This document shows, piece by piece, positions 17,959 through 64,000 of a DNA stretch of 64,000 nt. Position numbers and translations under genes: made by a program. This DNA is from Chryseobacterium indologenes (lineage in GTDB: Bacteria > Bacteroidota > Bacteroidia > Flavobacteriales > Weeksellaceae), in the NCBI GenBank assembly GCA_016025055.1, contig CP065590.1, positions 2,294,001 to 2,358,000 of the forward strand, written 5' to 3'. The stretch's first letter is position 1. Every line of letters begins with the position of its first letter. The notes under the pieces are model-generated. The model was not told the DNA's origin, did not search any database, and saw only the letters and a list, made by a program, of their open reading frames with translations.

Positions 17959-18008
17959 TAAAACAAAGATAAAACTTTACCTATTCTCACAAGATGATTA
18001 TTTTGACG

Positions 18009-25429: not shown

Positions 25430-26437
25430 TTAGTATACTCTCAGCCCCGCTCTTGATCCGGAAGCTGAAACTACAGATTGCATTCTTGTCTTCTGCCCTG
25501 CAGAAAACATAAACATTGCTGCATCGTTTACATAATCCATATAATTCATAAACATTACAGATCTGTTTTTACCACTGCAACGATTGTATAACGGATAAGT
25601 AGGCGTATCATAATTTTCAGAAGTTTGTGTTGGTGTATCAGCTACAAGATCATCTCCACATTTGGCATCTCCCCAGATATGCCTTAAATTCAGATAATGT
25701 CCTACTTCGTGAGTGGCAGTTCTTCCAAGGTTAAAATTGGCTGCTGCTCCTGTCTTACCAAAATAAGGAGCCGGAATAACAACCCCGTCATTCCATAATC
25801 CTGCAGATTCCGGGAAGGTAGCGTAGCCCAGAATGGTTCGGCCATCACTGCTTACAACTTTTCCGACAATCCATATATTTAAATAATTGGAAGGGCTTGT
25901 GGCATCTATTCCTCCGTTAGCAGATTTTTTCATAGTATCTTTTACCCAGCTCGTTTGAGTGGTTGCTTTACGAACTGTATTCGCTAATCTGAATTTGATT
26001 TTAACGTCTCCCGCCTTTACCGACTGAAATTCTGCCGGTATGTTGGTAACATCAGTATTTGTTCCGCTGTAGTCAGCATTTAATACATCAATCTGCTCAG
26101 CGATTCTGGCATCAGATAGATTTTCTGCGGCATTGCTGTATAATATATTGACTACCACCGGAATTTCGACACTTCCGTCTGTCAGAACTTTTCCAAGTTC
26201 GGCATTTTTTGCAAATCTTTCTGTATTGGCTTCCAATTCTGCATATCGTTGTCTCAGTTCAGGGCTTTTTTGTAAAGCCTCTTGCCTGATTTCTTCTGAA
26301 AGACAACTTCTTTGCAGAGCAGTGGTAGGAGAAGAAGCAGCTGGGTTTGCTGAAGTTTCATTTTGATTGGACATGTTGTCATTGGTACATGCTGACATCA
26401 TGCCTAGAGCGATAGCTCCAAATAGTAATTTTTTCAT
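25430..26437 (-). CDS. M43 family zinc metalloprotease, lipoprotein (tandem paralog)
   Basis: 335 residues. MKKLLFGAIALGMMSAC is a lipoprotein signal. HEVGHYLNLRHIWGD carries the HExxHxxGxxH zinc site, and MNYMDYVN is the Met-turn. C-terminal VVSASGSRAGLRVY is nearly the same as its neighbour at 24068. It has its own terminator and promoter block, so the two copies are separate transcription units arising by tandem duplication. Function as a surface protease is expected. Confidence 0.9.
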   Translation of the reverse strand: MKKLLFGAIALGMMSACTNDNMSNQNETSANPAASSPTTALQRSCLSEEIRQEALQKSPELRQRYAELEANTERFAKNAELGKVLTDGSVEIPVVVNILYSNAAENLSDARIAEQIDVLNADYSGTNTDVTNIPAEFQSVKAGDVKIKFRLANTVRKATTQTSWVKDTMKKSANGGIDATSPSNYLNIWIVGKVVSSDGRTILGYATFPESAGLWNDGVVIPAPYFGKTGAAANFNLGRTATHEVGHYLNLRHIWGDAKCGDDLVADTPTQTSENYDTPTYPLYNRCSGKNRSVMFMNYMDYVNDAAMFMFSAGQKTRMQSVVSASGSRAGLRVY

Positions 26438-45282: not shown

Positions 45283-45395
45283 TAATAAATCTAACTATAT
45301 ACCAGTGTAAAAAATGTAACAATCCATTTTGATCTGAGTAAAACACAGAACCTCAGTATAGATAGACTGTTAGATTGATGCATTGTTAAATTAAT
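45283..45395. repeat. Hairpin-family repeat in the esterase-paaZ spacer
   Basis: Contains TGTAACAATCC on the left and GACTGTTAGATTGATGCATT on the right, partly complementary with a loop of about 40 bases. More degenerate than the paaG-paaH copy. Confidence 0.45.
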
Positions 45396-45400
45396 ATTAT

Positions 45401-47895
45401 ATGGAAAAATTAAAAAACTATATCTACGGGCAATGGGTAGAAGGTAACGGAAACGGAATCCCTTTGTACAACGCTGTTACAGGAGAACAGGTTGCTGTTT
45501 CAGATACAGAAGGGCTCAATTTTGGGCAGGCACTCGACTACGGAAGAACAGTAGGATATAAAAACCTTTCATCAATGACTTTCTACGACCGTGGAGAGAT
45601 GTTGAAAAAAGTGGCGCTTTACCTTTTAGAAAGAAAGAAAAAATATTACGAATTATCATATAAAACAGGAGCAACGCATGTTGATTCATGGGTAGATATC
45701 GAAGGAGGTTTCGGAACTTTCTTTACCTATTCGGGACTGGCAAAAGAATGCTTCCCAATACTCCGTTCTGGGTAGATGGAGATACACAGAAAATTTCTGC
45801 CAACGGAACTTTCCTGGGAGCTCATATTTTAACGCCTAGTGAAGGAGTATCTGTACAGATTAATGCCTATAATTTTCCTGTTTGGGGAATGTTGGAAAAG
45901 TTATCCACATCATTGTTGGCAGGAGTACCGTCAATTGTAAAACCATCTCCATTCGGATCATATCTCACCAATGCAGTATTTCAGGATATGATTGAAAGTG
46001 GAGTATTACCTGATGGAGCGATTCAGTTGGTTTGTGGAGAACCCGGAAATATTCTTGATTATGTTCAGGATGGAGACTCCGTTTTATTTACAGGCTCTGC
46101 CCAAACAGGCAGAAAATTAAAGTCTCTTCCTTCGGTTGCCGGAAATGCTGTTCGCTTCAATATGGAGGCAGATTCTCTGAACTGTTCTATCCTTGGATTG
46201 GAAGCAAAACCGGGAACTCCGGAATTCGATTTATTCATCAAAGAAGTTCGTAACGAAATGACTACAAAGGCAGGCCAGAAATGTACTGCCATCAGAAGGA
46301 TTATTGTTCCTGAACACCTAATTGGTGATGTACAGAATGCTTTATCTAAAGCCTTAGATCAGACAAAAATCGGAAACCCGTTAAGCAGAGAAACAAAAAT
46401 GGGTTCTTTGGTTGGAAAACAACAATACGAAGAGGTTCTGAGAAAAGTAAATATGCTGAAAGCAGAAACAGAGCTTATCTATGACGGAAAACACGAACTG
46501 GTAGATGCCGACTATGAAAAAGGAGCATTTATGAGTCCTAAACTATTCCTGAACGATAGCCCTTTCGAAAAAAATATCTCTCATGATGTAGAAGCTTTCG
46601 GGCCGGTATCTACATTAATGCCTTATAAAGATGCAGAAGAAGCGGCAGCGCTGGCAAAAAGAGGAAAAGGAAGTTTGGTAGGGTCCATCATTTCTCACGA
46701 TGAAAACTTCATTGCTGAGACTTCATGGAAAATGGCTTCACAACACGGAAGAATCTTTGTTCTGAACAGAGACAATGCAAAAGAAAGTACCGGCCACGGT
46801 TCACCACTTCCGACATTAATGCACGGAGGACCGGGTAGAGCCGGCGGAGGTGAAGAAATGGGCGGTCTGAGCGGTCTTCATTTCTTCTTACAGAAAACAG
46901 CAATTCAGGGTTCTCCTGATGTTTTGAAAGCCATCACTAAAATTTATCAGCAGGGAGCAGAAAAGAAATTCTCAGACAAACATCCTTTCCAGAAATACTT
47001 TGAAGAAGTTGAAGTAGGAGATTCATTGGAAACAGCAGGAAGAACTGTAACAGACGCTGATATTGTAAACTTCTCCAACGTATCATGGGACCACTTCTAT
47101 GCACATACAGATGCAACGAGTCTGACAGGTACAATCTTTGATAAAACGGTAGCTCACGGATATTTTATCCTTTCAGCAGCTGCAGGATTATTTGTTTCAG
47201 GTAAAAAGGGACCTGTTATTGCCAATTACGGACTGGAAGAATGCAGTTTCTTCAAGCCTGTATATGCCGGAGATACCATCACCGTCTACTTAACAGCAAA
47301 AGAAAAAATCAACAGAGGCGTAAAAGGAAGAAACATCCCGTCAGGTGTAGTGAAATGGCTTGTTGAAGTAATTAACCAAAGAGATGAGGTCGTTTGTGTA
47401 GCAACAATTTTAACACTGGTAGCAAAACAATCTCCTTTCATTGATCTGAATGTGAAAAATGTTCAGAAAATACTAAGCGGACTGACAGAAAATACACCTT
47501 CCCAATGGGGGAAAATGTCACCACAGCAAATGATTGAACATCTTGATCAGGCATTACTGGTAAGTTTAGGAGAACCTGAAGCAGAAAAATGTTTCACTCC
47601 TGAAGAACATCTTGAAAAATGGCAGGACTCCCTGTATAATCACAGAAAAATGCCAAAAGAATTTACCGCTCCGTTCCTGCCTGAAGATGGCTCACTTCCT
47701 GAACCAGCACATAAAAATCTGGAGGCGGCAAAACAATCATTTTTGGATAATCTGAAACGTTTTGTGATTTATTACAGAGAAAATCCTCAGGCAGAACATA
47801 TGAACTATGTGTTCGGAAAATTAAATAAAGAAATGTGGGAGCTGATGCATAAGAAACATTTTACGCATCACTTCGAGCAGTTTGGTTTGATTTAA
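45401..47895 (+). CDS. paaZ: PaaZ oxepin-CoA hydrolase/aldehyde dehydrogenase with extra DUF1569 domain (apparent frameshift)
   Basis: The ring-opening bifunctional enzyme. The first frame runs to [15 protein letters not shown], then shifts. Adding one A to the A4 run at 45742-45745 gives [16 protein letters not shown] and one protein of about 831 residues. The aldehyde dehydrogenase part (to about residue 520) carries the Cys in GQKCTAIRR. The MaoC hydratase part reads [20 protein letters not shown] then [15 protein letters not shown] with its Asp/His pair. Residues after about 690 ([18 protein letters not shown] onward, 140 residues) match a DUF1569/DinB-like domain absent from E. coli PaaZ (681 residues). 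It is the last gene of the cluster. Confidence 0.9.
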
Positions 47896-51218: not shown

Positions 51219-51370
51219 GATTTTATATTTTAAAGTTTTCAGGAAAAAGCTGTATAGGTTGAATACTAAGCTTTTATAAAGATTATCAAAGATAGTCAGG
51301 TAACGATTTGGTAACAGTGCTTACTGCTTTGCTTTTCAACGTCTTTCCGTTAGCTCAAGGCAAATATACA

Positions 51371-51408
51371 AAAATAGAAGGATAGGAAAATTAAAACCTA
51401 TCCTTTAT
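51371..51408 (-). terminator. Terminator of hsdR
   Basis: The arms AAGGATAGG and CCTATCCTT around an AT-rich 10-base loop lie past the hsdR stop on the minus strand, followed by CTATTTTT. Confidence 0.65.
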
Positions 51409-51459
51409 TTATCGCTCTTAAATATTTTTGATTCTTATGAATCCTACTAGAATAAAACA

Positions 51460-54327
51460 TTAATTTCCTGATATCCCATTAACAAAAGTATCTACGAATC
51501 CAATGATTTTATTTAGAATACGATCTCCGATTTCCTTAGATTTTAATACACTTGGTCTTCCTTCTTTCCGTAAATCTAAAATTTCTTTTCGCAAAGGTTC
51601 ACGTTCTGTAAACAAATAATTTTCTATCAGTCTTTCTGTTTTTTCTTCGGAAAGATTTTCTGTTTTGACTAGTTCCTGAAGTGCTTTTTCTTGCTCTACA
51701 TTCCAGAATTTTTCAAACTCTTCTGGAATGGCATCCGTATCTTCGATATGTGGTAAACTTTCCTGAATAAATTTTTCAATCAATTCTCTTTTACTTCTTA
51801 ATGAGACCTCGGTGTTCAGTAAATTGAATATATCTTTTTCAATACTTTCTTTGTCTTTCGCACTATGTTTCGACTTGAATTTAATCAATAACTGAAGTAT
51901 GTAAGTTACATTGATTGTATCACGCCTAATCAATTCCAATTCAAAATCTATATCATTAAGAATAGACGCTTTTTTAGACGGATCAGTAGGATCGAGTTTT
52001 TCCTTTAAATCCAGATATTTACTGGTATAATCGGCAAAAAGTTGTTCCTCCATCTGTAAATCATCCCAAGTAAATTCTGTGTAATGGCTCATTTTTTTGT
52101 GCAAACGCATCATGGCACGGAAAGCCAAAATAAATTGTAGCTGATCTTCTTCCGAATATAAACCGTCAACAGATACTACTTGTGGAACGATTTCTAATAA
52201 TTTCTGCGTGGCTTCGTTAAACTTTTCTACATACGCTTCGTATGGTTCTACAATAATCTCATCAATTGCTTCTTTGTTGCTGAATAAAGCGATGGCTTCG
52301 TCTGTCTTGTCTTTTAGGTTTCGGAAACATACAATATTTCCCTGTGTTTTATTCTTATCCAGAATACGATTGGTACGGCTAAATGCTTGTATCAATCCAT
52401 GATATTTCAGATTTTTATCAACGTATAAGGTGTTTAAATACTTACTATCAAATCCTGTCAAAAACATATTGGCTACCAACAAAATATCCGTCTCGTTTTG
52501 CTTTGATTTTTTGGCTACCGCATTGTAATAGTTGTAAAATCCTTCGGTATCTTTTACGTTCTGTTTCTCTCCAAATAATTCATTAAAGTCTTGTACATAC
52601 GTTTCTAATAATTCTCTACGATGAGGTTTGTAGCCGTAAACTGCTTGTGGTTCAGCAACCATTCCTAATTGGGAATAAACAGCATCTTCCATTTCCTCTT
52701 CATTCTGAGCAAAGCTAAAAATAGTCGCTATTTTTAAATCGTGCTGTTCCTCTTGTTTTTTACGCTTGAAAATTTCATAGTATTGAATGACCGAATCAAT
52801 ATCCTGTACACACATCATTGCACAAAATTTCCTGTTTTGGGTTTTCTGATCGTGGTATTGAATGATGTAATCTACAATGGCTTCCTTTCGTTCAGGAGCT
52901 TCAAAAACTTCAGTTTCATTGATTTGCTCTACTTTTAAATCAATGATATGTTCTTTCTGTTTGAAAGTCTGAATGTATTCTACAGAAAACTTCAGTACAT
53001 TCTCATCACGTATGGCATCTGTAATTACATATTTATGCAGACATTTTCCAAACAAGCTTGCGGTTGTTTTTTCTCCATCTGCATTCTCTGCCAAAATGGG
53101 AGTGCCTGTAAAGCCAAATAATTGAATATTGGTAAAATAATTGACGATGTTTTTGTGGGTATCACCAAATTGCGAACGATGGCATTCGTCAAAGATAAAA
53201 ACCATCCTTTCGTGCTGAATGGATTTCATTTTTGATAAGTTTCTTCCTGAAATTGCATTATTTAGCTTTTGAATGGTGGTAACGATGATGCGAACATTCG
53301 GGTCGTTTAATTTACGAATGAGGTCATCCGTATTAGTAGCAGAACTTACCGAGCCCTTACTAAATTTATCATACTCTTGGTTGGTTTGATAATCCAGATC
53401 TTTTCTATCTACCACAAAAACCACTTTTTTGATAGCTGGAATTTTGGATAGAATCTGACTGGCTTTGAAACTGGTTAAGGTTTTTCCACTTCCAGTTGTA
53501 TGCCAGATGTAGCCATTTTTTTCGATGTTATAGCCATTCAGAATTTCGTTTTCTTTTACCTTTTTGATAATACTTTCTACCGCATAATACTGATATGGAC
53601 GAAGTACCATCAGACGTTTATCAGTTTCATTCAGAACGATATACTTACAGATCATTTTACTGATATGACAAGGTTCTAAAAAAGAATCGGTAAAGCCGTT
53701 TAAAATATTATTTAATGGATTATTTTGTTCGTCTGTCCAATGAAACGTCTGAAGATATTCCTGCTTATGTGTTCCAAAATTACTGAAATATTTGGTATTT
53801 ACACCGTTACTTATAACGAATAATTGTACAAAATGAAACAAACCCTTTCCAGCACCAAAGCTATGTTTTTGATAACGGTTGATTTGGTTGAATGCTTCTT
53901 TCATTTCCAAACCTCTTCGTTTCAGCTCGATTTGCACTAAAGGCAATCCATTCACCAGTAAGGTAACATCATAACGATTTTCATATTTCCCTTCTTGTGT
54001 AATTTGATTGGTTACCTGATATTCGTTCTGACACCAATGTTCTACATTGAGAAATTCAAAATACAGGTTATCACCATTATCCCGAATAATGTGATGTTTT
54101 TTTTCACGCAATACTTTGGCTTTTTCGAATACAGAACCTTTATTAAGTATATTCAATACTTTTTCAAATTCACTATCGCTAAATTGTATATGATTATGCT
54201 TTTCTAATTGTATTTTCAGGTTTGCCAGTAAAGCTATTTCATCAACAATAAAAGCGTATTTATATCCCAATTTCTGTAATTGGTCAATGAGTTGCTCTTC
54301 TAGAATTTGTTCGGACTGTTTGCTCAA
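51460..54327 (-). CDS. hsdR: Type I restriction enzyme R subunit
   Basis: 955 residues. The nuclease domain (NRYDVTLLVNG with QIELKRRG, the D and ExK of a PD-(D/E)xK site) is followed by a helicase motor with HTTGSGKTLTSF (Walker A), IFDECHRSQFG (DECH box), GFTGTPI and ANMFLTGFDSKYLNTLYVD (motif V), then a helical C-terminus. It translocates and cuts DNA when HsdMS reports unmethylated sites. It lies downstream of the recombinase gene, apart from hsdM and hsdS. Confidence 0.95.
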   Translation of the reverse strand: MSKQSEQILEEQLIDQLQKLGYKYAFIVDEIALLANLKIQLEKHNHIQFSDSEFEKVLNILNKGSVFEKAKVLREKKHHIIRDNGDNLYFEFLNVEHWCQNEYQVTNQITQEGKYENRYDVTLLVNGLPLVQIELKRRGLEMKEAFNQINRYQKHSFGAGKGLFHFVQLFVISNGVNTKYFSNFGTHKQEYLQTFHWTDEQNNPLNNILNGFTDSFLEPCHISKMICKYIVLNETDKRLMVLRPYQYYAVESIIKKVKENEILNGYNIEKNGYIWHTTGSGKTLTSFKASQILSKIPAIKKVVFVVDRKDLDYQTNQEYDKFSKGSVSSATNTDDLIRKLNDPNVRIIVTTIQKLNNAISGRNLSKMKSIQHERMVFIFDECHRSQFGDTHKNIVNYFTNIQLFGFTGTPILAENADGEKTTASLFGKCLHKYVITDAIRDENVLKFSVEYIQTFKQKEHIIDLKVEQINETEVFEAPERKEAIVDYIIQYHDQKTQNRKFCAMMCVQDIDSVIQYYEIFKRKKQEEQHDLKIATIFSFAQNEEEMEDAVYSQLGMVAEPQAVYGYKPHRRELLETYVQDFNELFGEKQNVKDTEGFYNYYNAVAKKSKQNETDILLVANMFLTGFDSKYLNTLYVDKNLKYHGLIQAFSRTNRILDKNKTQGNIVCFRNLKDKTDEAIALFSNKEAIDEIIVEPYEAYVEKFNEATQKLLEIVPQVVSVDGLYSEEDQLQFILAFRAMMRLHKKMSHYTEFTWDDLQMEEQLFADYTSKYLDLKEKLDPTDPSKKASILNDIDFELELIRRDTINVTYILQLLIKFKSKHSAKDKESIEKDIFNLLNTEVSLRSKRELIEKFIQESLPHIEDTDAIPEEFEKFWNVEQEKALQELVKTENLSEEKTERLIENYLFTEREPLRKEILDLRKEGRPSVLKSKEIGDRILNKIIGFVDTFVNGISGN

Positions 54328-54417
54328 AATAATTATGAATTAGGAGTTTATCTTATTTTTTTTACCTATGTACAAATTTAACAAAATATAATGTTCTCCT
54401 AATCCATAATCTAAAAC

Positions 54418-55344
54418 TTATCTAAGAGCCTTAAACATCTGCTCAATAGCTTTCTTCTTTTGTTCCATATTAGGATGTACATAAAGATTTAACGTAGTGC
54501 TGATGTTGGAATGCCCTAATAGTACACTTACCGTTTTATAATCGCAATTACTTTCAATACATCGGGTTGCGAAACTATGTCTTAACCCGTGAAATTTAAG
54601 TTCAGGCATTTTTAATTCTTTCATTAAATTTTTGTAATAGCTTCTGTAGGTTCTGGGTTCAGTTGGTTTAGCATCGTTTGTCAATACAAAAAATAAAGGA
54701 TTCACAATCTTTTTAAATGGTTTCAATATTCTTAATAAATCCTTACTTATCGGAATTTCACGAATAGAATTTTTAGTTTTAGGGGTATCCAGAATCAATT
54801 CCGTTCTACGAGTTCCATCTTCTATCATATAAATACGCTGGATGGTTCTGTTAACACTGATAATTCCGTTATCGGTATCAATATCTTCCCAAGTTAATGC
54901 ACATACTTCCCCAATACGCATTCCTGCACTTAAACATATATATACACCTAAATTCCTAAATGTAAAATGCTCTTGTATATAGTTCATTATTTTTTTCTGA
55001 TCAGTCTTGGTAAGCACTTCAATATTGTGCTTTTCTCGTTCAGTAGGAAACTGAATATCAAAAGGGGTATATTTCAACCATTTGTTTTTAGCTCCAAATT
55101 TCAAAATCATTTTCAGAACAATTAAAATATCCTTAATTGTTTTATGACTTAAGCCTGTTTCCAACTTTTGAAAAACAAAGCTTTGGACATCAGCTTCTTC
55201 AATCGCAATTTTATTACCGAAATTAGGCAGTAGATGATTTTCAATCAATAGCGTATAAGCTGAGAAACTTGACTTTTTTACATACTGTTTTTTGTCTATT
55301 TTCCATAGATCGATAACTTCTGAGAGTTGTTTTTGTTCATTCAT
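54418..55344 (-). CDS. Tyrosine recombinase, likely hsdS invertase
   Basis: 308 residues. N-terminal SAM-like binding domain (YTLLIENHLLPNFGNKIA) then the catalytic domain with AGMRIGEVCALTW (Arg), FHGLRHSFATR (HxxR), LLGHSNISTTLNLYVHP (His and Tyr). It lies between hsdR and a silent hsdS copy, beside inverted repeats shared with the expressed hsdS, as in known hsdS shufflons. An ordinary island integrase is the alternative, since an rteC-like gene is close by; no attachment site next to the gene was found. Confidence 0.85.
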   Translation of the reverse strand: MNEQKQLSEVIDLWKIDKKQYVKKSSFSAYTLLIENHLLPNFGNKIAIEEADVQSFVFQKLETGLSHKTIKDILIVLKMILKFGAKNKWLKYTPFDIQFPTEREKHNIEVLTKTDQKKIMNYIQEHFTFRNLGVYICLSAGMRIGEVCALTWEDIDTDNGIISVNRTIQRIYMIEDGTRRTELILDTPKTKNSIREIPISKDLLRILKPFKKIVNPLFFVLTNDAKPTEPRTYRSYYKNLMKELKMPELKFHGLRHSFATRCIESNCDYKTVSVLLGHSNISTTLNLYVHPNMEQKKKAIEQMFKALR

Positions 55345-55419
55345 TATAATTTAATTTTTTAAAATCTCAAAGGAAAGAAATTAAGGACACTTTATCCCCC
55401 AGATGGATTTGGAACTAAG

Positions 55420-55475
55420 GTTCCTAATTTGAGATTTCCTGAATTTACTGAGGAATGGGAAACTAAGAAGTTGGG
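55420..55475 (+). repeat. 56-bp inverted repeat, silent hsdS copy
   Basis: Identical, in inverted orientation, to 61403-61458 at the 5' end of the expressed hsdS. It codes for PNLRFPEFTEEWETKKLG. The ends are GTTCCTAATTTGAG and AACTAAGAAGTTGGG. Confidence 0.9.
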
Positions 55476-55947
55476 AGATATTGCTACGTTTTCAAAGGGA
55501 AAGGGAATTTCTAAAAGTGATATAGAAGAAAATGGAATTATTGAATGTATAAGATATGGCGAACTCTATACACATTACAGAGAAGTTATCAATGAAATAA
55601 AATCCAAGACTAATGTAAATACATCGACTTTAGTCTTAAGTGAAATGAATGACGTCATAATTCCTGCTTCTGGCGAAACAACAATCGATATTGCAACAGC
55701 TTCCTGTGTCTTGAAATCTGGGATTGCACTAGGAGGTGATTTGAATATCATTAAGACTAAGAATAATGGAATCTTTTTGTCTTATTATCTAAACAGTAAA
55801 AAGAAAATGGAAATAGCTAATTTAGCACAAGGTATTTCCGTAGTACATTTATATTCAAGTCAACTAGCTTCTCTTTCTTTAAGTCTACCAAAGCTTAATG
55901 AGCAAAATAGAATTTCTTCATTTTTGGCTTTACTTGACGAAAGAATC

Positions 55948-55970
55948 CAAACCCAAAACAAAATAATTGA
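55948..55970 (+). repeat. 23-bp inverted repeat, hsdS central linker (silent copy)
   Basis: The bases from CAAACCCAAAAC to TAATTGA recur exactly at 60860-60882 on the other strand, in the central linker of the expressed hsdS, so recombination there would exchange only the second recognition domain. Confidence 0.85.
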
Positions 55971-56590
55971 GGAGCTGAAGTTATTAAAGATTACGATTAG
56001 TAAGAAATTATTCTCACGTCAATTGAGATTTAAAAATGGAAACAATAAAAATTATATAGATTGGAATACTAAAAAGTTGGGAGAGGTTACAACTCTTATA
56101 AATAAGAGAAATAAAAATAACGAAAAGCTTCCTGTTTATTCTATAAATAACAAATTAGGATTCGTTCCGCAAAGTGAGCAATTCGAGGGAGTTGATAGCG
56201 AAGATAGAGGCTACGATATTAAATTATACAAAATAATTGACAAGAACACCTTTGCCTATAATCCAGCAAGAATTAATGTGGGATCTATTGGCTATAGTGA
56301 AAACTTAGAGAATATTATTATCAGTTCATTGTATGTTTGTTTTAAAACAGATAACATCGTAAATGATAACTTTCTATATCAATATCTAAAGACAGATTTT
56401 TTTAATAGAGAAGTTTTAAAAAATGTTGAAGGAGGAGTAAGAGATTATCTTTTCTATGACAATTTTGCGAGAATTAAATTTGATTTACCTTGTATTGAAG
56501 AGCAAAAAAAGATTGCTGATTACCTTTCATCTATAGATTCAAAGATTGATATTGAAAGCCAACTATTGCATAAATTTGAAGAACAAAGAG

Positions 56591-56638
56591 ATACTTGTTA
56601 GCTAATTTATTTATATAAATAAATTAGCTAACAAGTAT
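56591..56638. repeat. Perfect 48-bp palindrome at convergent hsdS ends
   Basis: The halves 56591-56614 and 56615-56638 are exact complements with no loop (core TTTATATAAA). They code for the last residues of two hsdS copies that converge here, YLLANLFI on the minus strand. It can fold as a hairpin in either transcript, and also marks the junction between the two copies. Confidence 0.9.
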
Positions 56639-57198
56639 TGTTTCTGCTTAAGTAATAGCGTATGAATTTCAAATTCAGTTTTTATTTTATCGTCAATACT
56701 TGATAGAAAATCTGCAACATATGTTTGTTGAACATAATTTGGTAATTGCATTTCCATAGGCTCAATTTCTGATATATAATGCCGTTTGTGTTCATTTGAT
56801 GATAGATTTAAAAATGACAAATACTCAAATATAAATTTTAGGTTAACATTTGGTTTCGCTGTCAGTATTTTAATTGCTGAAGATTTTACTTTGAATATAA
56901 AATTAACAAACTTTATATCCATTGTAAAATCATCGAAAATGATACATTGACCTTTGTCATAAATACCAAATTCTTCATCGGTATATCCTAATACAAAAGC
57001 TTTATTTGCAGTTAGAACTGGAATTAGCGAAATATCAGATGAATAATCTGTATTTGTAACCAAATATTTAGTTGGCTGTTCATAGTTTAAAGTATCCTTA
57101 ACTTGAACATATTCATTTTCTTGATTAAGAATTTGTTCGTATAGTTGATTGCGAAGCGTAATCACATAGGAAATAAAATCCCTAATTAAAGGGCTTTG
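56611..57198 (-). pseudogene. hsdS half-gene (central linker and second recognition domain)
   Basis: Opens after a stop at about 57199 and has a GTG at 57165. The frame begins SPLIRDFISYVITLRNQLYE (linker), then TKYLVTNTDYSSDISLIPVL through VQQTYVADFLSSIDDKI, a normal second recognition domain, and ends KQKQYLLANLFI. The first recognition domain is missing. No start or promoter suited to expression is seen; it is a reserve half cassette in the same orientation as the expressed hsdS. Confidence 0.75.
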
Positions 57199-57593
57199 TC
57201 AGAAACTAATTCTAAATCAAGTACCAAATAAGAAAATAAATAATTGTGTTTCTTGCTATTCATCATCATTAACAGAATCTGATGTAATTGATAAAAATGG
57301 AATTTACCCAGTTTATGGAGCTACAGGTGTTATTGCATTTACGGAAAATTCTCAAATTAATGAAGATGCGATTTTAATAATAAAAGATGGTTCTGGAGTT
57401 GGAAAGGTTCAATACGCATCGGATAAGTTTTCGGTTATTGGTACTTTGAACTATCTAACTGTAAAACCAGATGTTAATTTGAAGTATATTTTTTTCTGTT
57501 TAAAATTCTTCAACTTTGAGAAATACAAAGTTGGCTCTGGGATTCCGCATATCTATTTCAAAGATTATGGAGAATCATTAATTTTTTGCCCAT
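57181..57593 (+). pseudogene. hsdS half-gene, part before the IS21 insertion
   Basis: Frame LIKGLCQKLILNQVPNKK, then NNCVSCYSSSLTESDVID, IYPVYGATGVIAFTENSQIN and a continuing recognition domain ending IFCP, where the IS element begins. The rest of the gene resumes at 60162. It shares TAATTAAAGGGCT (57183-57195) in inverted orientation with 60833-60845 in the expressed hsdS, another possible crossover point. No first recognition domain or start codon. Confidence 0.8.
57589..57593 (+). repeat. Left target-site duplication of the IS21-type element
   Basis: CCCAT precedes the left end of the element and recurs at 60157-60161 after its right end. Confidence 0.85.
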
Positions 57594-57694
57594 TGTCTAT
57601 TTCGGAGATGCTGGGGCAGGGATTTCGGAGTCATTGGGCCAATTATTTCGCTAGTCATTGGGGCACTTTCCGATTACAATAATATACAATTTGA

Positions 57695-58432
57695 TTAAGA
57701 TTCCAATTTCTTTTTTCTACGATAGGATTCACCTGTCAATTCTACTCTATGTGAGGAGAATGTTACCCTGTCAAGTATAGCATCAGCAATCGTACTTTCA
57801 CCGATTAGTCCATGCCATTTTTCTACGGGGATCTGAGTAGCTATTATTAATGAGGCGCTATTATAACGATCTTCTATGATATCCAAAAGTGCTGTCCTTG
57901 CGTGCTGATCTATGGAAGTAAGTCCAAAGTCATCGAGTATTAGTAATTCTGCTCTTTCGATCTTTTTGAGTAACTTATGGTATGTGCCATCCAATCTGGC
58001 GATTTTCACCATATCAAAGAACCTGCCTGTATTGAGATAGAGCGTCTTATACAACATCTGACAGGCTTTAACTCCGATACACTGCGCAAGGAAGCTTTTT
58101 CCTGAACCGGCAGAGCCTGTTAATATTATGTTTTCTTTACGGTTTATAAACCCCAGAGAAAGGAGTCTCTCAAACATATTTCTGTCAAGGTTTCTGGAAG
58201 GGTTGTAATCAATGTCAGTGGCAGCAGCTTTTTCCTTGAATGAAGCCCTGTAGATCAGATTATCAATATTCTTATTCTGTCTAGCTTCCCATTCTGCATC
58301 GATAATGGTCGCTAGGAAGTCATCCAGGCTCATTTCACGATAAAGATTATCACTCAGACTACTTCGATAAAGCTCGGCCATGGTGATCATACGCATCTTG
58401 CGCATTTTTTCGATTGTTGTGTTCTCATTCAT
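57695..58432 (-). CDS. istB: IS21-family transposition helper ATPase IstB
   Basis: 245 residues, DnaA/DnaC-like AAA ATPase. ILTGSAGSGKSFLAQCIG is the Walker A motif, LLILDDFGLTSID the Walker B, and ATQIPVEKWHGLIGE the sensor region. It delivers IstA to target DNA and selects the site. It follows istA after 23 bp. Confidence 0.95.
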   Translation of the reverse strand: MNENTTIEKMRKMRMITMAELYRSSLSDNLYREMSLDDFLATIIDAEWEARQNKNIDNLIYRASFKEKAAATDIDYNPSRNLDRNMFERLLSLGFINRKENIILTGSAGSGKSFLAQCIGVKACQMLYKTLYLNTGRFFDMVKIARLDGTYHKLLKKIERAELLILDDFGLTSIDQHARTALLDIIEDRYNSASLIIATQIPVEKWHGLIGESTIADAILDRVTFSSHRVELTGESYRRKKKLES

Positions 58433-58455
58433 ATTATCATTTTTAATGTTGTTTA

Positions 58456-60000
58456 CTATCTGTAAATCGAGGTGTCCCGTAGATTTTCATGCTCAGGGAT
58501 ATGGAAGGTCTGTTGTACTTCCTCTTCTAGAGTGTCAAGTTTATTTTTAAGGATATTGACTATCGTTTGGTAAGATGATTTATGATGGAAAAGACCTCTT
58601 TTACAGGCGTTTTCAACGCGGGAAACGCTATGGGTTTTCACAAGAGCAAGTATTCCCTGTGCCTGTTTATACCCTAGTTCAGGGTAGCTATACTGTGCAA
58701 TTAGTTGGCGGATATATTGTTGTGCAGATGGTCCAACAGCTTCGGCCCGCTGTTCAAAGTACATCGGACTCCAGTGGTTATAAACCTGATGTGAAGAAGG
58801 CATATGATCTGCGATGGTGGCATAGTTACCCGGTCGAAAGCACCGCTGATGCTTTGCTATACGCTGAAAGTTATAAAAGACCTCAACAGTGTCATTGTTA
58901 TATTGAACTTCTACATGATGGCCAATATAACGGTGAGGTACACTATAGTAGTTTCTATCAGCATTGAGATATATATGTGATATCTTCTGCACTTTTGCTC
59001 GTCTAAAGTACCGCAAGTTATAGGTTGATAAAGGTAACGGGGTTAGGTGTTCTTTTTCCATATCAATAAATTGGCTCCTCCTAGTGGAGCCTCCATGTGA
59101 GAACAAATAATCATTATATAACACCAACTGTTCTGCTATGGCTACATTAAGTTCTTTCAAACTAAAGAAGGTCTGTTTGTCCAGTGGGTAAAAGATACGC
59201 TGGTAGACCAATGTTACACTACGTTCTACAAGAGCTTTATCTTGTGGGTGATATGGGCGGGCAGGATCTACTACACAACTATGAAAGAGTGCAAAGTCGG
59301 CAAGTGTTTTATTGATTTCTGGGGCATATTTGGAGCCTTTACTCACGGCTGATTTAAGATTGTCAGATACAATAGCCTGCGGCACGCCACCAGACCACTG
59401 CAAACAGCTATTAAGGCAATCGATAAAATCTTCACGTTTTTGGCTTGCAACGGCTTTTACAAACGTATATTGACTGCAGGGATAGACGGCAACGAAGATT
59501 TCGACAGGGATAACCTCTCCTGTACCTCTATCAACATAGGACATCTTTTTGCCTGTAAAGTCTACGAAAAGTTTTTCACCCGCTTTATGATCCAGTTTCC
59601 CCGAAGCTTTGATCTTGCCTCTCCACTTTCTGTAATGGGTGGTAAATTGGGTATAGCGGTAACCATCAGGATATTCAAGTAGGTAATTTTGCCATAACGT
59701 CTGCAAGGTGGCCCCAGGGCGCTTAAGCTCTTGCTGTATCTTACTGAACTGAGATGACAGGTGTTCATATCGCATCTTTTCGGTTTGGTCATCCTGGGTA
59801 AAAAGATCATGAAGATTTGCATCATCCATAGCTAGAAGTTCAGCATGATCTAATTCTAGTACTTTAAACCGCTTAATATAGCTGTCCACCGTTTTACGGT
59901 TGATGTTCATTATCTGGGCAACCTTACGGTTACTAAGTCCTTTTTTCTTTAGAAGGATAAGTGTTCTGAGTTCCATTTTGTCTTTCCGTTGTCCTGCCAT
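58456..60000 (-). CDS. istA: IS21-family transposase IstA
   Basis: 514 residues. An N-terminal helix-turn-helix (LSNRKVAQIMNINRKTVDSY) and an integrase-core domain with LFVDFTGKKMSYV (first Asp), AIVSDNLKSAVSK (second Asp) and PQDKALVERSVTLVYQRI (Glu) form the DDE site. The C-terminal part (VQKISHIYLNADRNYYSVP) is the usual Mu-transposase-like barrel. Both active-site Asp residues and the Glu are present, so it looks functional. Confidence 0.95.
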   Translation of the reverse strand: MAGQRKDKMELRTLILLKKKGLSNRKVAQIMNINRKTVDSYIKRFKVLELDHAELLAMDDANLHDLFTQDDQTEKMRYEHLSSQFSKIQQELKRPGATLQTLWQNYLLEYPDGYRYTQFTTHYRKWRGKIKASGKLDHKAGEKLFVDFTGKKMSYVDRGTGEVIPVEIFVAVYPCSQYTFVKAVASQKREDFIDCLNSCLQWSGGVPQAIVSDNLKSAVSKGSKYAPEINKTLADFALFHSCVVDPARPYHPQDKALVERSVTLVYQRIFYPLDKQTFFSLKELNVAIAEQLVLYNDYLFSHGGSTRRSQFIDMEKEHLTPLPLSTYNLRYFRRAKVQKISHIYLNADRNYYSVPHRYIGHHVEVQYNNDTVEVFYNFQRIAKHQRCFRPGNYATIADHMPSSHQVYNHWSPMYFEQRAEAVGPSAQQYIRQLIAQYSYPELGYKQAQGILALVKTHSVSRVENACKRGLFHHKSSYQTIVNILKNKLDTLEEEVQQTFHIPEHENLRDTSIYR

Positions 60001-60156
60001 GCTGTGATCATATGATTATACAACAGCAACTTAAGCAGTTTAATGGAAAGTGGCCCAACGACCTCCGAATTTAAGAAGATTATTTGGCCCATTGACCTCC
60101 GAAATAATTGGCAAATCAAACCGAATCAACTGGCCCATTGACCTCCGTTATAGACA

Positions 60157-60161
60157 CCCAT
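60157..60161 (+). repeat. Right target-site duplication of the IS21-type element
   Basis: CCCAT follows the right end and matches 57589-57593. Removing the element and one copy rejoins GCCCATCACTTGATGAAC, i.e. CPSLDEQG, in frame. Confidence 0.85.
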
Positions 60162-60292
60162 CACTTGATGAACAAGGTAATATTGAGAAATTACTATCAT
60201 CACTTGATGAGAAAATAAATATTGAAAAGACGTTATTAAAAAAATATGAAATACAAAAAAGAACCTTTTACAGAACTTGTTTATATAAATAG
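60162..60292 (+). pseudogene. hsdS half-gene, part after the IS21 insertion
   Basis: Continues the domain split at 57593: SLDEQGNIEKLLSSLDEKIN and IEKTLLKKYEIQK. It then reads RTFYRTCLYK and stops. One extra A in the A6 run at 60255-60260 would give QKKNLLQNLFI, the normal HsdS end, so this may be a sequencing indel. The end overlaps the 3' end of the convergent expressed hsdS. Confidence 0.75.
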
Positions 60293-61488
60293 GCTCTGTA
60301 ACAGATATTGTTTTTGACAATGGTATTTATCTAAAATATTTTTTCTGTTTGAATTTTTGTTTCAATAACAGAAAGAAAATTGGCAATGGTAGTTTGCTCA
60401 TCTAAACAAGGAGATTTGATAGGCATAGATTGAAACATTGGCAATCGTAATGACTTTACAGTAGAACCAACTGCTTTTGATTGTAAATATTTATCATCAT
60501 TAAGTAAATGGTAATATAAATATTTTCCATTTATTCCTCTGAAATCAAAAATCGCATATGTTCGTTGATGAAGATCAAATTTTCCTATAAAATATTTAGG
60601 GATAAATTCTTGCCCTTCTCCTGGAACAATTACTGCTTCTTTATCAAACAAAAATCTACTACTTGTTCTAATATCTTGTGACCTGTCAAAAAACGTATAT
60701 TCTCCATTTAAAATAGAATCTTCTCGATTAGAAGAACCAGTTGTAATGGTTGATATTTCGCCTAACTTCTTCACCTCCCATTTCTCTGTGAATTTCTTAA
60801 ACCTAATTTTCTGCGAATATATTTTTTCACTTAGCCCTTTAATTAAGGTTTCTAATTGTTCAATTATTTTGTTTTGGGTTTGAATACGTTCATCCATCAA
60901 ACTCAATAAAATAGTGATTCTTTCTTGCTCATTTACGGAGGGAAATGATAATTCTATTTTTGAAATCCTTCCAGTATTGATACTTAAAACCTTCGACCCT
61001 TGGGATTCTTTTTGAATTTGGGTTCTGACAGAATTGGATTTGAATAAATAACCATTAAAGCCCAAGTGGAAAATACTTGATTTTGGTCTTCCTAATAAGG
61101 TGTGTAAACCTGATAATAATTTTTCGCTATTGACATTTATAATTTCGATACTTTTTCCCACATCATTCAAATCTTCTGAAGCATCAGCAAAAATTACATC
61201 TCCTTCTTTGCAATAATTTTCATCAGAAATCCTGTCAAGATTTATTTCTTCATTTATGAAAGGGACTACTTCCTTAGTAGTGTCAAATAAGGTTTGAAAT
61301 TTAGTGTGAATATCTCCGTAATGGATATTTTTTACCGTACCGACTTCGTAATTTAAATTTTCACGAGAAAAGGAGTTGGTTACTTTAAAGTGCATCACTT
61401 CCCCCAACTTCTTAGTTTCCCATTCCTCAGTAAATTCAGGAAATCTCAAATTAGGAACGTTACCTACTTTTAATTTTTTATTTATCAT
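60281..61488 (-). CDS. hsdS: Type I restriction specificity subunit (expressed copy, apparent frameshift at the end)
   Basis: The expressed specificity gene, 48 bp after hsdM on the same strand, beginning MINKKLKVGNVPNLRFPEFT. Two recognition domains (residues about 20-180, then after the linker LLSLMDERIQTQNKIIEQLE a second beginning KWEVKKLGEISTITTG) set the target sequence of HsdMS. The frame as read stops at TEKIF (60331). Adding one A to the A6 run at 60339-60344 gives TEKNILDKYHCQKQYLLQ and the family end SLFI at 60281. The 56-bp and 23-bp segments here are inverted copies of those in the silent copy at 55363. Confidence 0.88.
60860..60882 (-). repeat. 23-bp inverted repeat, hsdS central linker (expressed copy)
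   Basis: Exact inverted match to 55948-55970 in the silent copy. Confidence 0.85.
61403..61458 (-). repeat. 56-bp inverted repeat, expressed hsdS
   Basis: Exact inverted match to 55420-55475. A crossover here would invert about 6 kb and put the silent copy behind the expressed start codon. Confidence 0.9.
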
Positions 61489-61535
61489 CTCGATGATTCA
61501 ATTTTCGTTAGTAAAAACATTAAGGATGTAAAAAA

Positions 61536-63086
61536 TTAAAAAACAAGTCCCAATTCTTTGAAGTACACATCAATCTCTTTGTCCAGTTGCGCTCGTTTTG
61601 CTTCTAAAGATTTGATTTCCTGCATTACGGATTGAATATCGATTTCTTCTTCGGCTTCAAATGTATCTACGTAGCGAGGAATGTTGAGGTTATAGTCATT
61701 CTCTTCAACTTCTTTTAGGGTAGCTAAGTGACTGTATTTTTCAATAGTCGTTCTGTTACGGTAGGTTTCAACAATCTTATCGATATGTTCTTCCCGTAAC
61801 ATATTTTGGTTCTTAACTTTCTCGAATTCTTTACTGGCATCAATAAATAAGATATTGTCAGGATCTTCCTTACACTTTTTAAATACCAGAATACAAGTTG
61901 GTATACTTGTTCCGTAGAAAATATTGGCAGGTAAGCCTATGACCGCATCCAAATAATTTTTCTGTTCAATCAGGTATTTACGAATATGCAGTTCTGATGC
62001 TCCACGGAACAACACACCATGAGGCAGAACAATAGCCATTGTTCCATTCTCTGCCAAATGATAAATCATGTGTTGCACAAATGCAAAGTCAGCTTTGCTT
62101 GAAGGAGCTAATTTTCCATATTGGCTAAAACGGTCATCATTTAAAAATAATGGATTGGCACTCCATTTCGCTGAAAAAGGAGGATTTGCGACAATTGCTT
62201 CAAATGGCATATCGTTTAAATGCTGTGGATGTTCTAGTGTATCCTCTTGTTTTATATCGAACTGACGATAATGCACTCCATGCAAGATCATATTCATGCG
62301 AGCAAGATTGTACGTTGTACGGTTCATTTCTTGTCCGTAGAAATTATTGACATCTTTTACTTCTCTTGCAACACGTAATAGTAATGATCCTGAACCACAA
62401 GTTGGGTCATATACCGATTTTAAACGATTTTTACCTGTTGTAACAATTTTTGCAAGAATTTTGGATACTTCTTGAGGCGTATAAAACTCTCCCGCTTTTT
62501 TTCCTGCACCGCTGGCAAACTGACCGATCAAATACTCATAAGCATCTCCTAAAACATCCAATTCTGTATCATTCAATTTGAAGTCAATTTCATCGAGATG
62601 CTTTAGAACTTTTACAATAAGTGTATTTCTAGCATCAGCAGTTCTACCCAGATTATTACTATTCAAATCCATATCAGAGAACAAGTCCTCAAAGTCTTCT
62701 TCACTTTGTGTTCCCATTGTACTGAGCTGGATATTGGTCAGGATTTTTTGTAAATCTTCAAGGATGAAATTGTTATCACCTCTTTTGGTAATTTCGCTAA
62801 ATAGTTCAGAAGGCTTTAAAAAATAACCCAATGTTTCCAGAGCTTCTTCTCGAATAGCTCCAATATATTCTAAACCTTTAGGCGTATCTTCTTTGATATC
62901 TCTGAATTGGATTTGATCTTCTTCCAAAATGGAATTCGCATAGATTTCCATTTTTTCAGCCAAATACTTATAAAAAATAAATCCCAAAATATAATCTCGG
63001 AATTCATCTGCATTCATTTTTCCACGTAACGTATTGGCTATATTCCAGAGCTGTTGCTCTAATATTTTCTTCTGTTCTTCTGACAT
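61536..63086 (-). CDS. hsdM: Type I restriction-modification DNA methyltransferase subunit
   Basis: 516 residues. N-terminal HsdM domain (LWNIANTLRGKMNADEFRDY), SAM-binding motif DPTCGSGSLLLRVAR and catalytic ANPPFSAKW (NPPF, N6-adenine methylation). It adds methyl groups at the sequence chosen by HsdS and forms the core of the restriction complex. It is the first gene of the hsdM-hsdS unit, starting MSEEQKKILEQQL. Confidence 0.95.
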   Translation of the reverse strand: MSEEQKKILEQQLWNIANTLRGKMNADEFRDYILGFIFYKYLAEKMEIYANSILEEDQIQFRDIKEDTPKGLEYIGAIREEALETLGYFLKPSELFSEITKRGDNNFILEDLQKILTNIQLSTMGTQSEEDFEDLFSDMDLNSNNLGRTADARNTLIVKVLKHLDEIDFKLNDTELDVLGDAYEYLIGQFASGAGKKAGEFYTPQEVSKILAKIVTTGKNRLKSVYDPTCGSGSLLLRVAREVKDVNNFYGQEMNRTTYNLARMNMILHGVHYRQFDIKQEDTLEHPQHLNDMPFEAIVANPPFSAKWSANPLFLNDDRFSQYGKLAPSSKADFAFVQHMIYHLAENGTMAIVLPHGVLFRGASELHIRKYLIEQKNYLDAVIGLPANIFYGTSIPTCILVFKKCKEDPDNILFIDASKEFEKVKNQNMLREEHIDKIVETYRNRTTIEKYSHLATLKEVEENDYNLNIPRYVDTFEAEEEIDIQSVMQEIKSLEAKRAQLDKEIDVYFKELGLVF

Positions 63087-63349
63087 TGAAATAAGCGTTA
63101 TTTGATTAGGGATTTTTAATCCTTAAGAATCCACTAAAATAGTAAACTTTTAGCTACTAAACATTATGTAGGCTGTAAAAAAGGTGGTTGTTTGAATAGA
63201 TAAATTTGGTCTAGAAAATTTTAAAAATTCGTTTATTACAAGTAATACTAGGAGAAGTCATCTATTTCTTTCTATAATAATTTAAAGAACTTTTTTTTTC
63301 TTTCATTTTATTCATCTGTTTTTGACAAGGCTATCTTAGAAGTATTCGT
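63087..63349. other. AT-rich spacer between hsdM and the rteC-like gene
   Basis: 263 bp with no gene or repeat that I can support. It should contain the hsdM promoter on the minus strand, but I see no clear TTTG/TAnnTTTG pair. Confidence 0.4.
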
Positions 63350-64000
63350 TTACAAATCTTTATCCATATATTCTTCTAAAGAAGATTTCAGTTGGTCTAA
63401 AAATGCGGTTCGGGAACCTGCACGATATTTCATTCGATGGAAAGAATGATGCAAATCTCCTAAAGAAATCTGAAACATTCTTTCTAAAGCCAAACTGATT
63501 TTGCGTATTCCTATTTTACCATCAGAAAGAGAGCTATTTGCGTAAAGAGCATAAATCAGTTCTATCAAGGCATTTTTGGTATCCGTCCAAAGGATGCTAT
63601 CAGATATATCCCTCGCAGAAAAATCTGCCATTTCATCATCATTGATTTTTTGGAGAATGTAGGTATAGAGTAGTTCATTGGCTATTATCCGAGCCACTTT
63701 GTTATCATAATAAGTTGAAAACAGGGGGTCAATTTCAAATACAAAACTATTCAAACCATCGTGGAAATTAATATTACCTAATCTAAAGTAGGTTTCATCA
63801 CGGTCGGTTCTTCCTGAACGGTAATATCTGTAAAAATCTGAATTGTAGATATGCTCCCTGTATTCCTGTTTTAATTCCTTCAACTGTTCCAAAAAATAAC
63901 TCGCATACATTTTCCCTCCATCAACAGGGCAAGCTGTCTGTATGCGAAATATCTTATTGTGGTAAATAAGCTTGGAGAGAATATATGGCTTGATATTGCG
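63350..64000 (-). CDS. rteC: RteC-like protein, 5' end outside window
   Basis: Open on the minus strand from 63350 to the window edge (KPYILSKLIYHNKIFRIQT precedes the ATG at 63910 in frame, so the true start is beyond 64000). The visible part (LTDTKNALIELIYALYANSS-like stretch, ALERMFQISLGDLHHSFHRM, and FLDQLKSSLEEYMDKDL) matches RteC, the protein that activates excision of CTnDOT-type conjugative transposons. It suggests that the adjacent restriction genes belong to or border an integrated mobile element. Confidence 0.8.
   Translation of the reverse strand, partial: RNIKPYILSKLIYHNKIFRIQTACPVDGGKMYASYFLEQLKELKQEYREHIYNSDFYRYYRSGRTDRDETYFRLGNINFHDGLNSFVFEIDPLFSTYYDNKVARIIANELLYTYILQKINDDEMADFSARDISDSILWTDTKNALIELIYALYANSSLSDGKIGIRKISLALERMFQISLGDLHHSFHRMKYRAGSRTAFLDQLKSSLEEYMDKDL

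What the first reader, a model, noticed from the sequence alone, without database searches (positions are those of the whole stretch)
55363..61488. Invertible type I specificity locus with a recombinase and three reserve hsdS copies
The expressed hsdS and a start-less full-length copy share an exact 56-bp inverted repeat (55420-55475 and 61403-61458) at the 5' end and an exact 23-bp inverted repeat in the central linker (55948-55970 and 60860-60882). A third short inverted match, TAATTAAAGGGCT, links a half-gene (57183-57195) with the expressed copy (60833-60845). Two half-genes lie between, and a tyrosine recombinase gene sits next to the silent copy. Inversion at the outer repeats would swap the whole gene; at the inner repeat, only the second recognition domain. 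The known comparison is hsdS shufflons with linked recombinases; the number of states and the layout with an IS in one cassette are what I could not match to a described case.
Basis: partly seen in the sequence, partly recalled or inferred. Interest (0 to 1): 0.85.

Follow-up and report, generated by a model that had tools for sequence, protein, structure and literature searches.

The report
Shuffling DNA-recognition genes, Bacteroides fragilis type
A Chryseobacterium carries, on a mobile element, a DNA-marking and DNA-cutting enzyme whose recognition gene is rebuilt by flipping DNA segments, probably into up to eight versions; this kind was already known in Bacteroides fragilis, but comparing relatives exposes the flipping sites and a rule that would keep pieces from being lost.

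Summary
[quoted passage not shown] Shuffling is shown by comparison: Chryseobacterium oranimense DSM 19055 carries nearly the same DNA (blocks 99.7-100% identical, six of six recognition domains identical as protein), but its four second-domain cassettes are permuted. In 14 of 14 four-cassette loci both cores lie at the same distance from the inner repeat, each with an identical inverted copy elsewhere in the array and none in direct orientation, although the first core's sequence varies between loci. On this model cassettes flip but are not deleted, giving 8 HsdS proteins (6 without the IS-split cassette). It is the same kind as B. fragilis shufflon BB (eight combinations, four repeat sets): a new member of a known kind. 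No reads or methylomes were available; recombinase action and incompatibility of the two cores are inferred.

The parts
51460..54327 (-). hsdR, type I restriction subunit
   Evidence: Pfam HSDR_N, EcoR124_C; NCBIfam hsdR above cut-off
54418..55344 (-). tyrosine recombinase (308 aa), presumed invertase
   Evidence: Pfam Phage_integrase; aligns with an Int protein of solved structure, 6emy (catalytic motifs recalled); hsdS-like matches on both strands beside it in 27 of 27 fetched relatives whose stretch reaches far enough
55420..55475 (+). outer repeat, site A, silent side
   Evidence: exact 56-bp inverted copy at 61403-61458; copies co-vary within loci in 49 loci
55429..56601 (+). silent full-length hsdS (S2): first domain S2T1, second domain S2T2
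   Evidence: Pfam Methylase_S
55948..55970 (+). inner repeat, site B, silent side
   Evidence: exact 23-bp inverted copy at 60860-60882; block boundary between window and G072
55989..55995 (+). alpha core GATTACG in the linker of the silent gene
   Evidence: 7-bp overlap of aligned blocks between window and G072
56591..56638 (.). 48-bp perfect palindrome joining the 3' ends of S2 and H1
56611..57163 (-). half-gene H1, second-domain cassette of the alpha class
   Evidence: 100% identical as protein to the expressed second domain of G072
57157..57163 (-). alpha core GATTACG at the head of H1
57187..60292 (+). half-gene H3, second-domain cassette of the beta class, split by the IS21
   Evidence: its 5' part is 100% identical as protein to a cassette without IS in G072
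57594..60156 (-). IS21-family insertion (istB 57695-58432, istA 58456-60000), flanked by 5-bp direct repeats CCCAT
   Evidence: sequence; Pfam IstB_IS21, rve; absent there in G072; the only istA match in the genome at E<=0.001
60331..61488 (-). expressed hsdS (S1): first domain S1T1, second domain S1T2
   Evidence: ATG start, follows hsdM on the same strand; expression itself not measured
60835..60841 (-). beta core TAAAGGG in the linker of the expressed gene
60860..60882 (-). inner repeat, site B, expressed side
61403..61458 (-). outer repeat, site A, expressed side
61536..63086 (-). hsdM, type I methyltransferase subunit
   Evidence: Pfam N6_Mtase, HsdM_N; NCBIfam hsdM above cut-off
51221..64000 (.). 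left part of the mobile element carrying the locus; it runs on past the window, probably to about G000:C1:2373290
   Evidence: homology to G072, G016 and G045 starts at 51221 with different flanking DNA in each; RteC, MobA/MobB and an integrase-like gene

Best explanation
The locus is an hsdS shufflon on a mobilisable element. The adjacent tyrosine recombinase inverts DNA between four kinds of paired, inverted sites: A (start of each full hsdS), B (its central linker), and two different 7-bp cores at one position 39 bases past the start of B, alpha (GATTACG here) and beta (TAAAGGG here). A-A inversion exchanges the expressed and silent genes; B-B inversion reverses the block of second domains; alpha-alpha and beta-beta inversions exchange the second domain of a full gene with that of the neighbouring half-gene. 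Two first and four second domains give 8 possible HsdS proteins; the IS21 leaves 6 without the split cassette. Like sites always face each other, so cassettes flip but are not deleted. SHOWN: the sites, a permuted state in a near-identical locus, breakpoints at B and alpha, co-variation of the alpha cores. INFERRED: that this recombinase acts on all four sites, that alpha and beta do not recombine with each other, that switching goes on in the window's strain, and that each HsdS gives its own methylation motif.
For: Block boundaries lie in the 23-bp B site and in the 7-bp GATTACG; in a symbolic model the shortest path is one B and one alpha inversion. (2) G016 and G045 have exchanged first domains and block order, as A-A plus one half-array inversion would give. 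(3) L072 and L075 show a third order with S2T2 in the expressed slot. (4) The linker 7-mer at offset 39-45 has an inverted copy inside the array and no direct copy in 14 of 14 four-cassette loci, for alpha and for beta. Alpha is GATTACG in 7 loci, GAATACG in 2, GAGTACG in 4, GACTGCA in 1, the two copies of a locus always identical; a locus's alpha occurs in an array with another alpha in 3 of 126 comparisons; near the central alpha, linker 7-mers from offsets 30-38 match in 0 of 14 loci. (5) Site A copies agree within loci beyond each of 300 permutations (0.710 against at most 0.644, 49 loci). (6) Draft contigs end within 1 kb of the recombinase on the hsdS side in 28 of 80 loci, on the other side in 2 of 80. 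In 6 of 24 contig pairs compared (22 genomes) the recombinase-side and hsdM-side contigs share an identical end of 22-141 nt that starts at or within 2 nt of site A; in 3 of them (95, 123, 141 nt) it runs past a repeat of about 56-60 bp into one first domain.
Against: No reads or methylome: switching in this strain is not observed. Recombinase and sites are linked only by neighbourhood. The 14 loci share ancestry, so 14 of 14 is not 14 independent tests. The beta boundary is not sharp: neighbouring offsets 36-38 also match in 12-13 of 14 loci, beta varies little, and a beta core occurs in arrays with another beta core in 19 of 70 comparisons; L143 has three inverted beta matches. The search around the central core was centred on the core itself, so 14 of 14 at offset 39 is partly by construction. 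In the 2 three-cassette loci checked (L040, L110) one linker core has no inverted partner. Around site B co-variation was weak in a loose set of 60 loci (mean 0.486 against permuted 0.496; z 3.3-3.5 only at two positions); in a stricter set the varying dinucleotide agreed in 20 of 24 loci (permuted mean 7.8, max 17 of 5000), 2 of the 4 exceptions being mis-picked sites (compare). 18 of 24 contig pairs share no end of 22 nt or more. A shared first domain at both contig ends could also mean identical domains in both genes, as in L051. Three of four cassette 3' ends in the window, the expressed one included, are frameshifted relative to G072.
Confidence: 0.85

Rival explanations
1. The rearrangements are made by general homologous recombination between repeats, and the recombinase is only a remnant of a mobile element.
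For: Sites A (56 bp) and B (23 bp) are perfect repeats; in pneumococcus some IR2 and IR3 inversion occurs without the locus recombinase (PMC7096588, passages).
Against: One crossover lies in 7 bp of identity with unlike flanks, too short for RecA by general knowledge; the recombinase adjoins hsdS copies on both strands in 27 of 27 relatives that reach far enough, also where hsdM and hsdR have diverged or moved.
Confidence: 0.06
2. The differences between genomes are old and fixed; the locus no longer switches.
For: IS21 in H3; three frameshifted cassette 3' ends.
Against: Two inversions against one substitution in the aligned blocks shared with G072; recombinase 100% identical to that of G072 and in frame. 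In other isolates draft contigs break at the sites, in 3 of 24 pairs with both outer flanks ending in the same first domain.
Confidence: 0.08
3. Assembly artefact: the window's layout is a mis-joined product of a repeat-rich locus.
For: The assembly has apparent indel errors (frame breaks in a paaZ-like gene and a histidine kinase-like gene; names recalled).
Against: The same four-cassette layout is found in separately sequenced genomes of other genera.
Confidence: 0.03

Closest known systems
Bacteroides fragilis NCTC 9343 hsdS shufflon BB (BF1839-1842) and its 638R relative (PMC3090145, passages; Ben-Assa et al. 2020, NAR 48:11040, seen only as a reference entry, content recalled)
   Same: Eight HsdS combinations, four sets of inverted repeats, a tyrosine integrase next to the last hsdS, in 638R on a horizontally acquired island; its printed 38-base repeat matches the two B sites of the window at 28 and 30 of 38 bases.
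   Different: Other hosts and other recognition domains; IS21 in one cassette here. Whether the B. fragilis loci use two 7-bp cores was not tested: no B. fragilis chromosome was fetched.
Streptococcus pneumoniae cod/SpnIII locus with PsrA (PMC7096588, passages; PMC4948785, search listing only)
   Same: hsdR, hsdM, several hsdS, a tyrosine recombinase, inverted repeats.
   Different: Three repeat pairs and six HsdS forms (PMC7394358, passage); repeats and cassette layout differ.
Duplicated inverting hsdS loci of the REBASE survey (PMC7394358, abstract and passages)
   Same: Facing hsdS genes with inverted repeats, often with a recombinase; the two-cassette relatives found here are of this kind.
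   Different: Its main text names B. fragilis but holds neither 'Chryseobacterium' nor 'Flavobact' (supplements not seen).
Inverton group 145 of gut strains (PMC11892184, passages)
   Same: Invertons overlapping restriction subunit S genes, near tyrosine recombinases and relaxase/MobC genes, thought to spread horizontally.
   Different: Gut strains of two phyla; repeat sequences not compared here.

Membership tests
Type I restriction-modification system | hsdR, hsdM and hsdS in one locus | tested here: met
   Pfam; NCBIfam hsdR and hsdM above cut-offs; hsdS by Pfam Methylase_S only
Invertible hsdS shufflon with linked recombinase | one expressed and further silent hsdS copies joined by inverted repeats | tested here: met
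Invertible hsdS shufflon with linked recombinase | tyrosine recombinase next to the hsdS array | tested here: met
Invertible hsdS shufflon with linked recombinase | alternative arrangements of the same sequences exist | tested here: met
   G072 against window; G016 against G045
Invertible hsdS shufflon with linked recombinase | inversion within one clonal population | not testable with these tools
   no reads; indirect hint from contig ends of other isolates
Invertible hsdS shufflon with linked recombinase | the recombinase is needed for inversion | not testable with these tools
   needs a mutant or an in vitro assay
B. fragilis shufflon BB kind | eight HsdS combinations from four sets of inverted repeats | tested here: met
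   sites A, B, alpha, beta; 8 expressed combinations in the model, not measured
B. fragilis shufflon BB kind | central-linker repeat with CCCAAAACAAAAT | tested here: met
   28 and 30 of 38 bases in the window; at least 28 of 38 in 37 of 81 loci examined
B. fragilis shufflon BB kind | methylated motif changes with the expressed hsdS | not testable with these tools
   needs methylome data
Mobilisable element of Bacteroidota | integrase and relaxase genes and defined ends with differing flanks | tested here: inconclusive
   MobA and MobB above cut-offs, integrase-like gene below every NCBIfam cut-off; shared left end with differing flanks in window, G072, G016, G045; right end only by a 9-bp repeat

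The most novel reading that the evidence does not exclude
One recombinase serves two mutually incompatible 7-bp crossover cores at the same register of hsdS. Because the junction between the half-genes carries one of each, facing its own partner, every possible event is an inversion and none a deletion; a core may drift in sequence provided both copies change together, so the repertoire stays whole while the element moves between families. It would be a natural counterpart of engineered orthogonal lox or att sites.
Probability: 0.55. Interest if true: 0.62.

Novelty: new member of a known kind. Interest (0 to 1): 0.5.

Why it matters
Phase-variable type I systems change a cell's methylation pattern and its defence against phages and foreign DNA. 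Here a natural pair of near-identical copies in two species shows which crossovers happened, and comparison across genera suggests how such a locus can shuffle for a long time without losing parts: two core sequences that each pair only with themselves. That is directly testable on plasmids and, if right, tells how to read the number of possible states of such loci from sequence alone.

Tried and rejected
Chance for the short match: rejected only by comparison; 13 bp alone is within the shuffle range. Co-variation at site B in the loose set of 60 loci gave almost nothing; a stricter set did. The number of T2 orders does not discriminate between one and two cores: a one-core model also gives 8 orders and 8 expressed combinations, but with a direct repeat in 32 of 32 states. 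Preservation of the cassette pairs likewise follows from tail-to-tail linkage and is not counted as evidence for two cores. The frameshifted 3' ends as random long-read errors: three of four indels against G072 inside the window fall in cassette ends, while other A/T runs of 7 or more in the compared stretch keep their length except one 8/9 run; apparent frame breaks in two other genes of the window keep the artefact reading open. Plasmid relatives of the recombinase: the best annotated one (B. finegoldii, 59.7% identity) has no hsdS beside it. Papers: searches gave no paper describing this locus in Chryseobacterium or a two-core scheme in the titles, abstracts and passages seen; the most relevant papers (Ben-Assa 2020, Huang 2020) are not held and Milman 2023 was seen only as a reference entry, so absence from print is not claimed.
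Full report
1. Observation. The three inverted matches are exact where stated. The 56-bp and 23-bp repeats exceed anything in 100 shuffles (mean longest 14.3, maximum 20); the 13-bp match does not by itself. Between hsdR (51460-54327) and hsdM (61536-63086), both on the minus strand, lie a tyrosine recombinase (54418-55344, -), a full hsdS on the plus strand (S2), a half-gene on the minus strand (H1), a half-gene on the plus strand (H3) split by an IS21 with 5-bp direct repeats, and the full hsdS with an ATG on the minus strand (S1). S2 and H1 meet tail to tail in a 48-bp perfect palindrome.

2. The locus in the genus. The recombinase has a match at E<=1e-40 in 35 of 173 genomes of the genus, own included. 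I fetched stretches of 33 of the 34 others. In the 27 that reach far enough, hsdS-like matches lie on both strands next to the recombinase; the other six run off their contig. Most have two facing genes; some have four cassettes as here. In two (L039, L040) hsdM and hsdR are diverged and placed otherwise although the recombinase is 92-93% identical. Of 212 related stretches in named genomes 80 were kept; they include Flavobacterium, Myroides, Epilithonimonas, Sphingobacterium, Pedobacter, Mucilaginibacter, Dysgonomonas and Bacteroides.

3. A permuted twin. G072 has a contig of the same length as C. oranimense DSM 19055 NZ_FQWT01000004.1. All six recognition domains of the window are there at 100% protein identity, in DNA blocks of 99.7-100% identity, with one substitution and three single-base gaps in the five aligned blocks. 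First domains are in the same places. Second domains run (silent, minus half, plus half, expressed) = (S2T2, H1, H3, S1T2) in the window and (S1T2, H3, S2T2, H1) in G072. The blocks meet in the 23-bp site B and in 7 bp, GATTACG (55989-55995 and, inverted, 57157-57163). A B inversion followed by a GATTACG inversion is the shortest path in a symbolic model. The IS21 is absent in G072: the blocks on its two sides abut with the 5-bp duplication.

4. More states. G016 has the G072 order with other domains in the S1T1 and S1T2 slots; G045 has the window's order, with S2T1 in the expressed and not in the silent gene. L072 (Flavobacteriaceae PS02336) and L075 (Myroides sp. 1354) have H3 in the silent and S2T2 in the expressed slot; L092 (Myroides phaeus) has the window's order. 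So S1T2 or its replacement, H1 and S2T2 have each been seen in the expressed slot. All of these orders are among the 8 of the model, with an unidentified cassette put in the S1T2 slot.

5. Two cores, one register. Counting from the first base of AACCC in site B, the linker 7-mer at offset 39-45 is GATTACG (alpha) in one full gene and TAAAGGG (beta) in the other. I examined 16 loci with more than two cassettes. In the 14 with four cassettes both 7-mers have an inverted copy inside the array and no direct copy. The copy lies at 0.48-0.53 of the array length in 12 loci; in the window the IS shifts it, and the L080 array is about 1 kb longer. Alpha is GATTACG in seven loci (window, G072, G016, G045, L072, L075, L092), GAATACG in L077 and L080, GAGTACG in L111, L117, L142 and L143, GACTGCA in L125; beta is TAAAGGG, TAAAGGA (L077, L143) or TAAAGCA (L111). 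Within a locus the copies agree. A locus's alpha occurs in an array with another alpha in 3 of 126 comparisons, beta in 19 of 70. For alpha the left edge is sharp (offsets 30-38: 0 of 14 loci; 39: 14; 40: 8); for beta it is not (36: 12, 37 and 38: 13, 39: 14). In the two three-cassette loci only beta has a partner. By position, H1-like domains sit in the alpha half in 12 of 12 four-cassette loci where one was found and H3-like ones in the beta half in 11 of 11; but an S1T2-like domain, beta here, sits in the alpha half of L077.

6. Why two cores could matter. In the model with two exclusive cores there are 16 arrangements, 8 orders of second domains, 8 expressed combinations, and no state with a directly repeated like site. 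With one common core there are again 8 orders and 8 combinations but 32 of 32 states hold a direct repeat, so deletion is possible. That alpha and beta do not recombine is inferred from the known need of tyrosine recombinases for identity in the crossover region (recalled), not shown.

7. Signs of ongoing inversion elsewhere. Among the 80 loci, contigs end within 1 kb of the recombinase on the hsdS side in 28 and on the hsdR side in 2 (two-sided binomial p 9e-7). I searched 27 of these 28 genomes for hsdM (L134 not held) and compared 24 contig pairs from 22 genomes. Six share an identical contig end of 22, 30, 43, 95, 123 and 141 nt starting at or within 2 nt of site A; three more share 10-16 nt. 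In Epilithonimonas hungarica (95), Emticicia sp. BO119 (123) and a Chryseobacterium MAG (141) the shared end runs past a repeat of about 56-60 bp into one first domain, as if that domain were joined to both outer flanks in the sequenced cells. Identical first domains in both genes could look alike (as in L051). Some hsdM matches were only 42-52% identical and may belong to other systems, and hsdM stretches were cut 1500 bases out, so the misses say little.

8. Mobile element. Homology to G072, G016 and G045 starts at window 51221, with different DNA before it in each. To the right follow RteC, MobA and MobB above their cut-offs and an integrase-like gene. A 9-bp direct repeat TATTTTAAA at 51226 and at L068:18287 may mark the ends, about 28 kb apart. 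Near-identity of the locus in two species of the genus suggests recent transfer.

9. State of the locus in this genome. The expressed, silent and H3 3' ends are each frameshifted near the 3' end by one base relative to G072; H1 is intact. Outside the cassettes the only other indel inside the window is a T run of 9 against 8. The assembly shows frame breaks in two other genes. I cannot tell artefact from real change.

10. What is known. PMC3090145 (passages) reports for B. fragilis NCTC 9343 an hsdS shufflon with eight combinations, four sets of inverted repeats, an adjacent tyrosine integrase, and a 38-base repeat that matches the two B sites of the window at 28 and 30 bases. PMC5903667 (passages) found inversion among type I systems in 13 species; PMC7394358 (abstract, passages) surveyed duplicated hsdS loci; PMC11892184 (passages) reports hsdS-type invertons near relaxase genes. 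The window is therefore a new member of a known kind. The two-core reading is what I could not match, but the closest papers were not held.

Noticed in passing
window 56570-56640 and 60240-60345: Three of four hsdS cassette 3' ends, the expressed one included, are frameshifted by one base relative to the near-identical G072 locus; they make up three of the four indels against G072 inside the window. Real change or assembly error is open.
   Followed up: partly
window 45290-45900 and 16590-18000: Apparent frame breaks in a paaZ-like gene and a histidine kinase-like gene (names recalled) suggest indel errors in this assembly.
   Followed up: partly
window 51221 to L068:18287: The hsd locus lies in a mobilisable element of about 28 kb with RteC, MobA/MobB and an integrase-like gene; homology to relatives starts at 51221 with different flanks.
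   Followed up: partly
L051 5044-5546 and 6831-7333 (recombinase on the minus strand): In G042 the first domains of the two facing hsdS genes are an exact 503-bp inverted duplicate, as if one had been copied onto the other.
   Followed up: no
L039, L040: A 92-93% identical recombinase sits beside hsdS genes of a type I system with diverged hsdM (60%) and hsdR (42-43%) placed on the far side, as if the shuffling module moved between systems.
   Followed up: no
L077: An S1T2-like second domain belongs to the alpha half here but to the beta half in the window, so domains can change core class over long times.
   Followed up: no
L151 9001-9927: A recombinase of the same family (59.7% identity) on a Bacteroides finegoldii plasmid record has no annotated hsdS within 9 kb.
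   Followed up: no
L090, L130: MAG contigs labelled Ignatzschineria and Azovibrio carry this Bacteroidota recombinase (93% and 77%); probably binning errors.
   Followed up: no
window 24068-25066 and 25430-26437: Two neighbouring, similar genes that look like secreted zinc metalloproteases (by eye from the ORF list).
   Followed up: no
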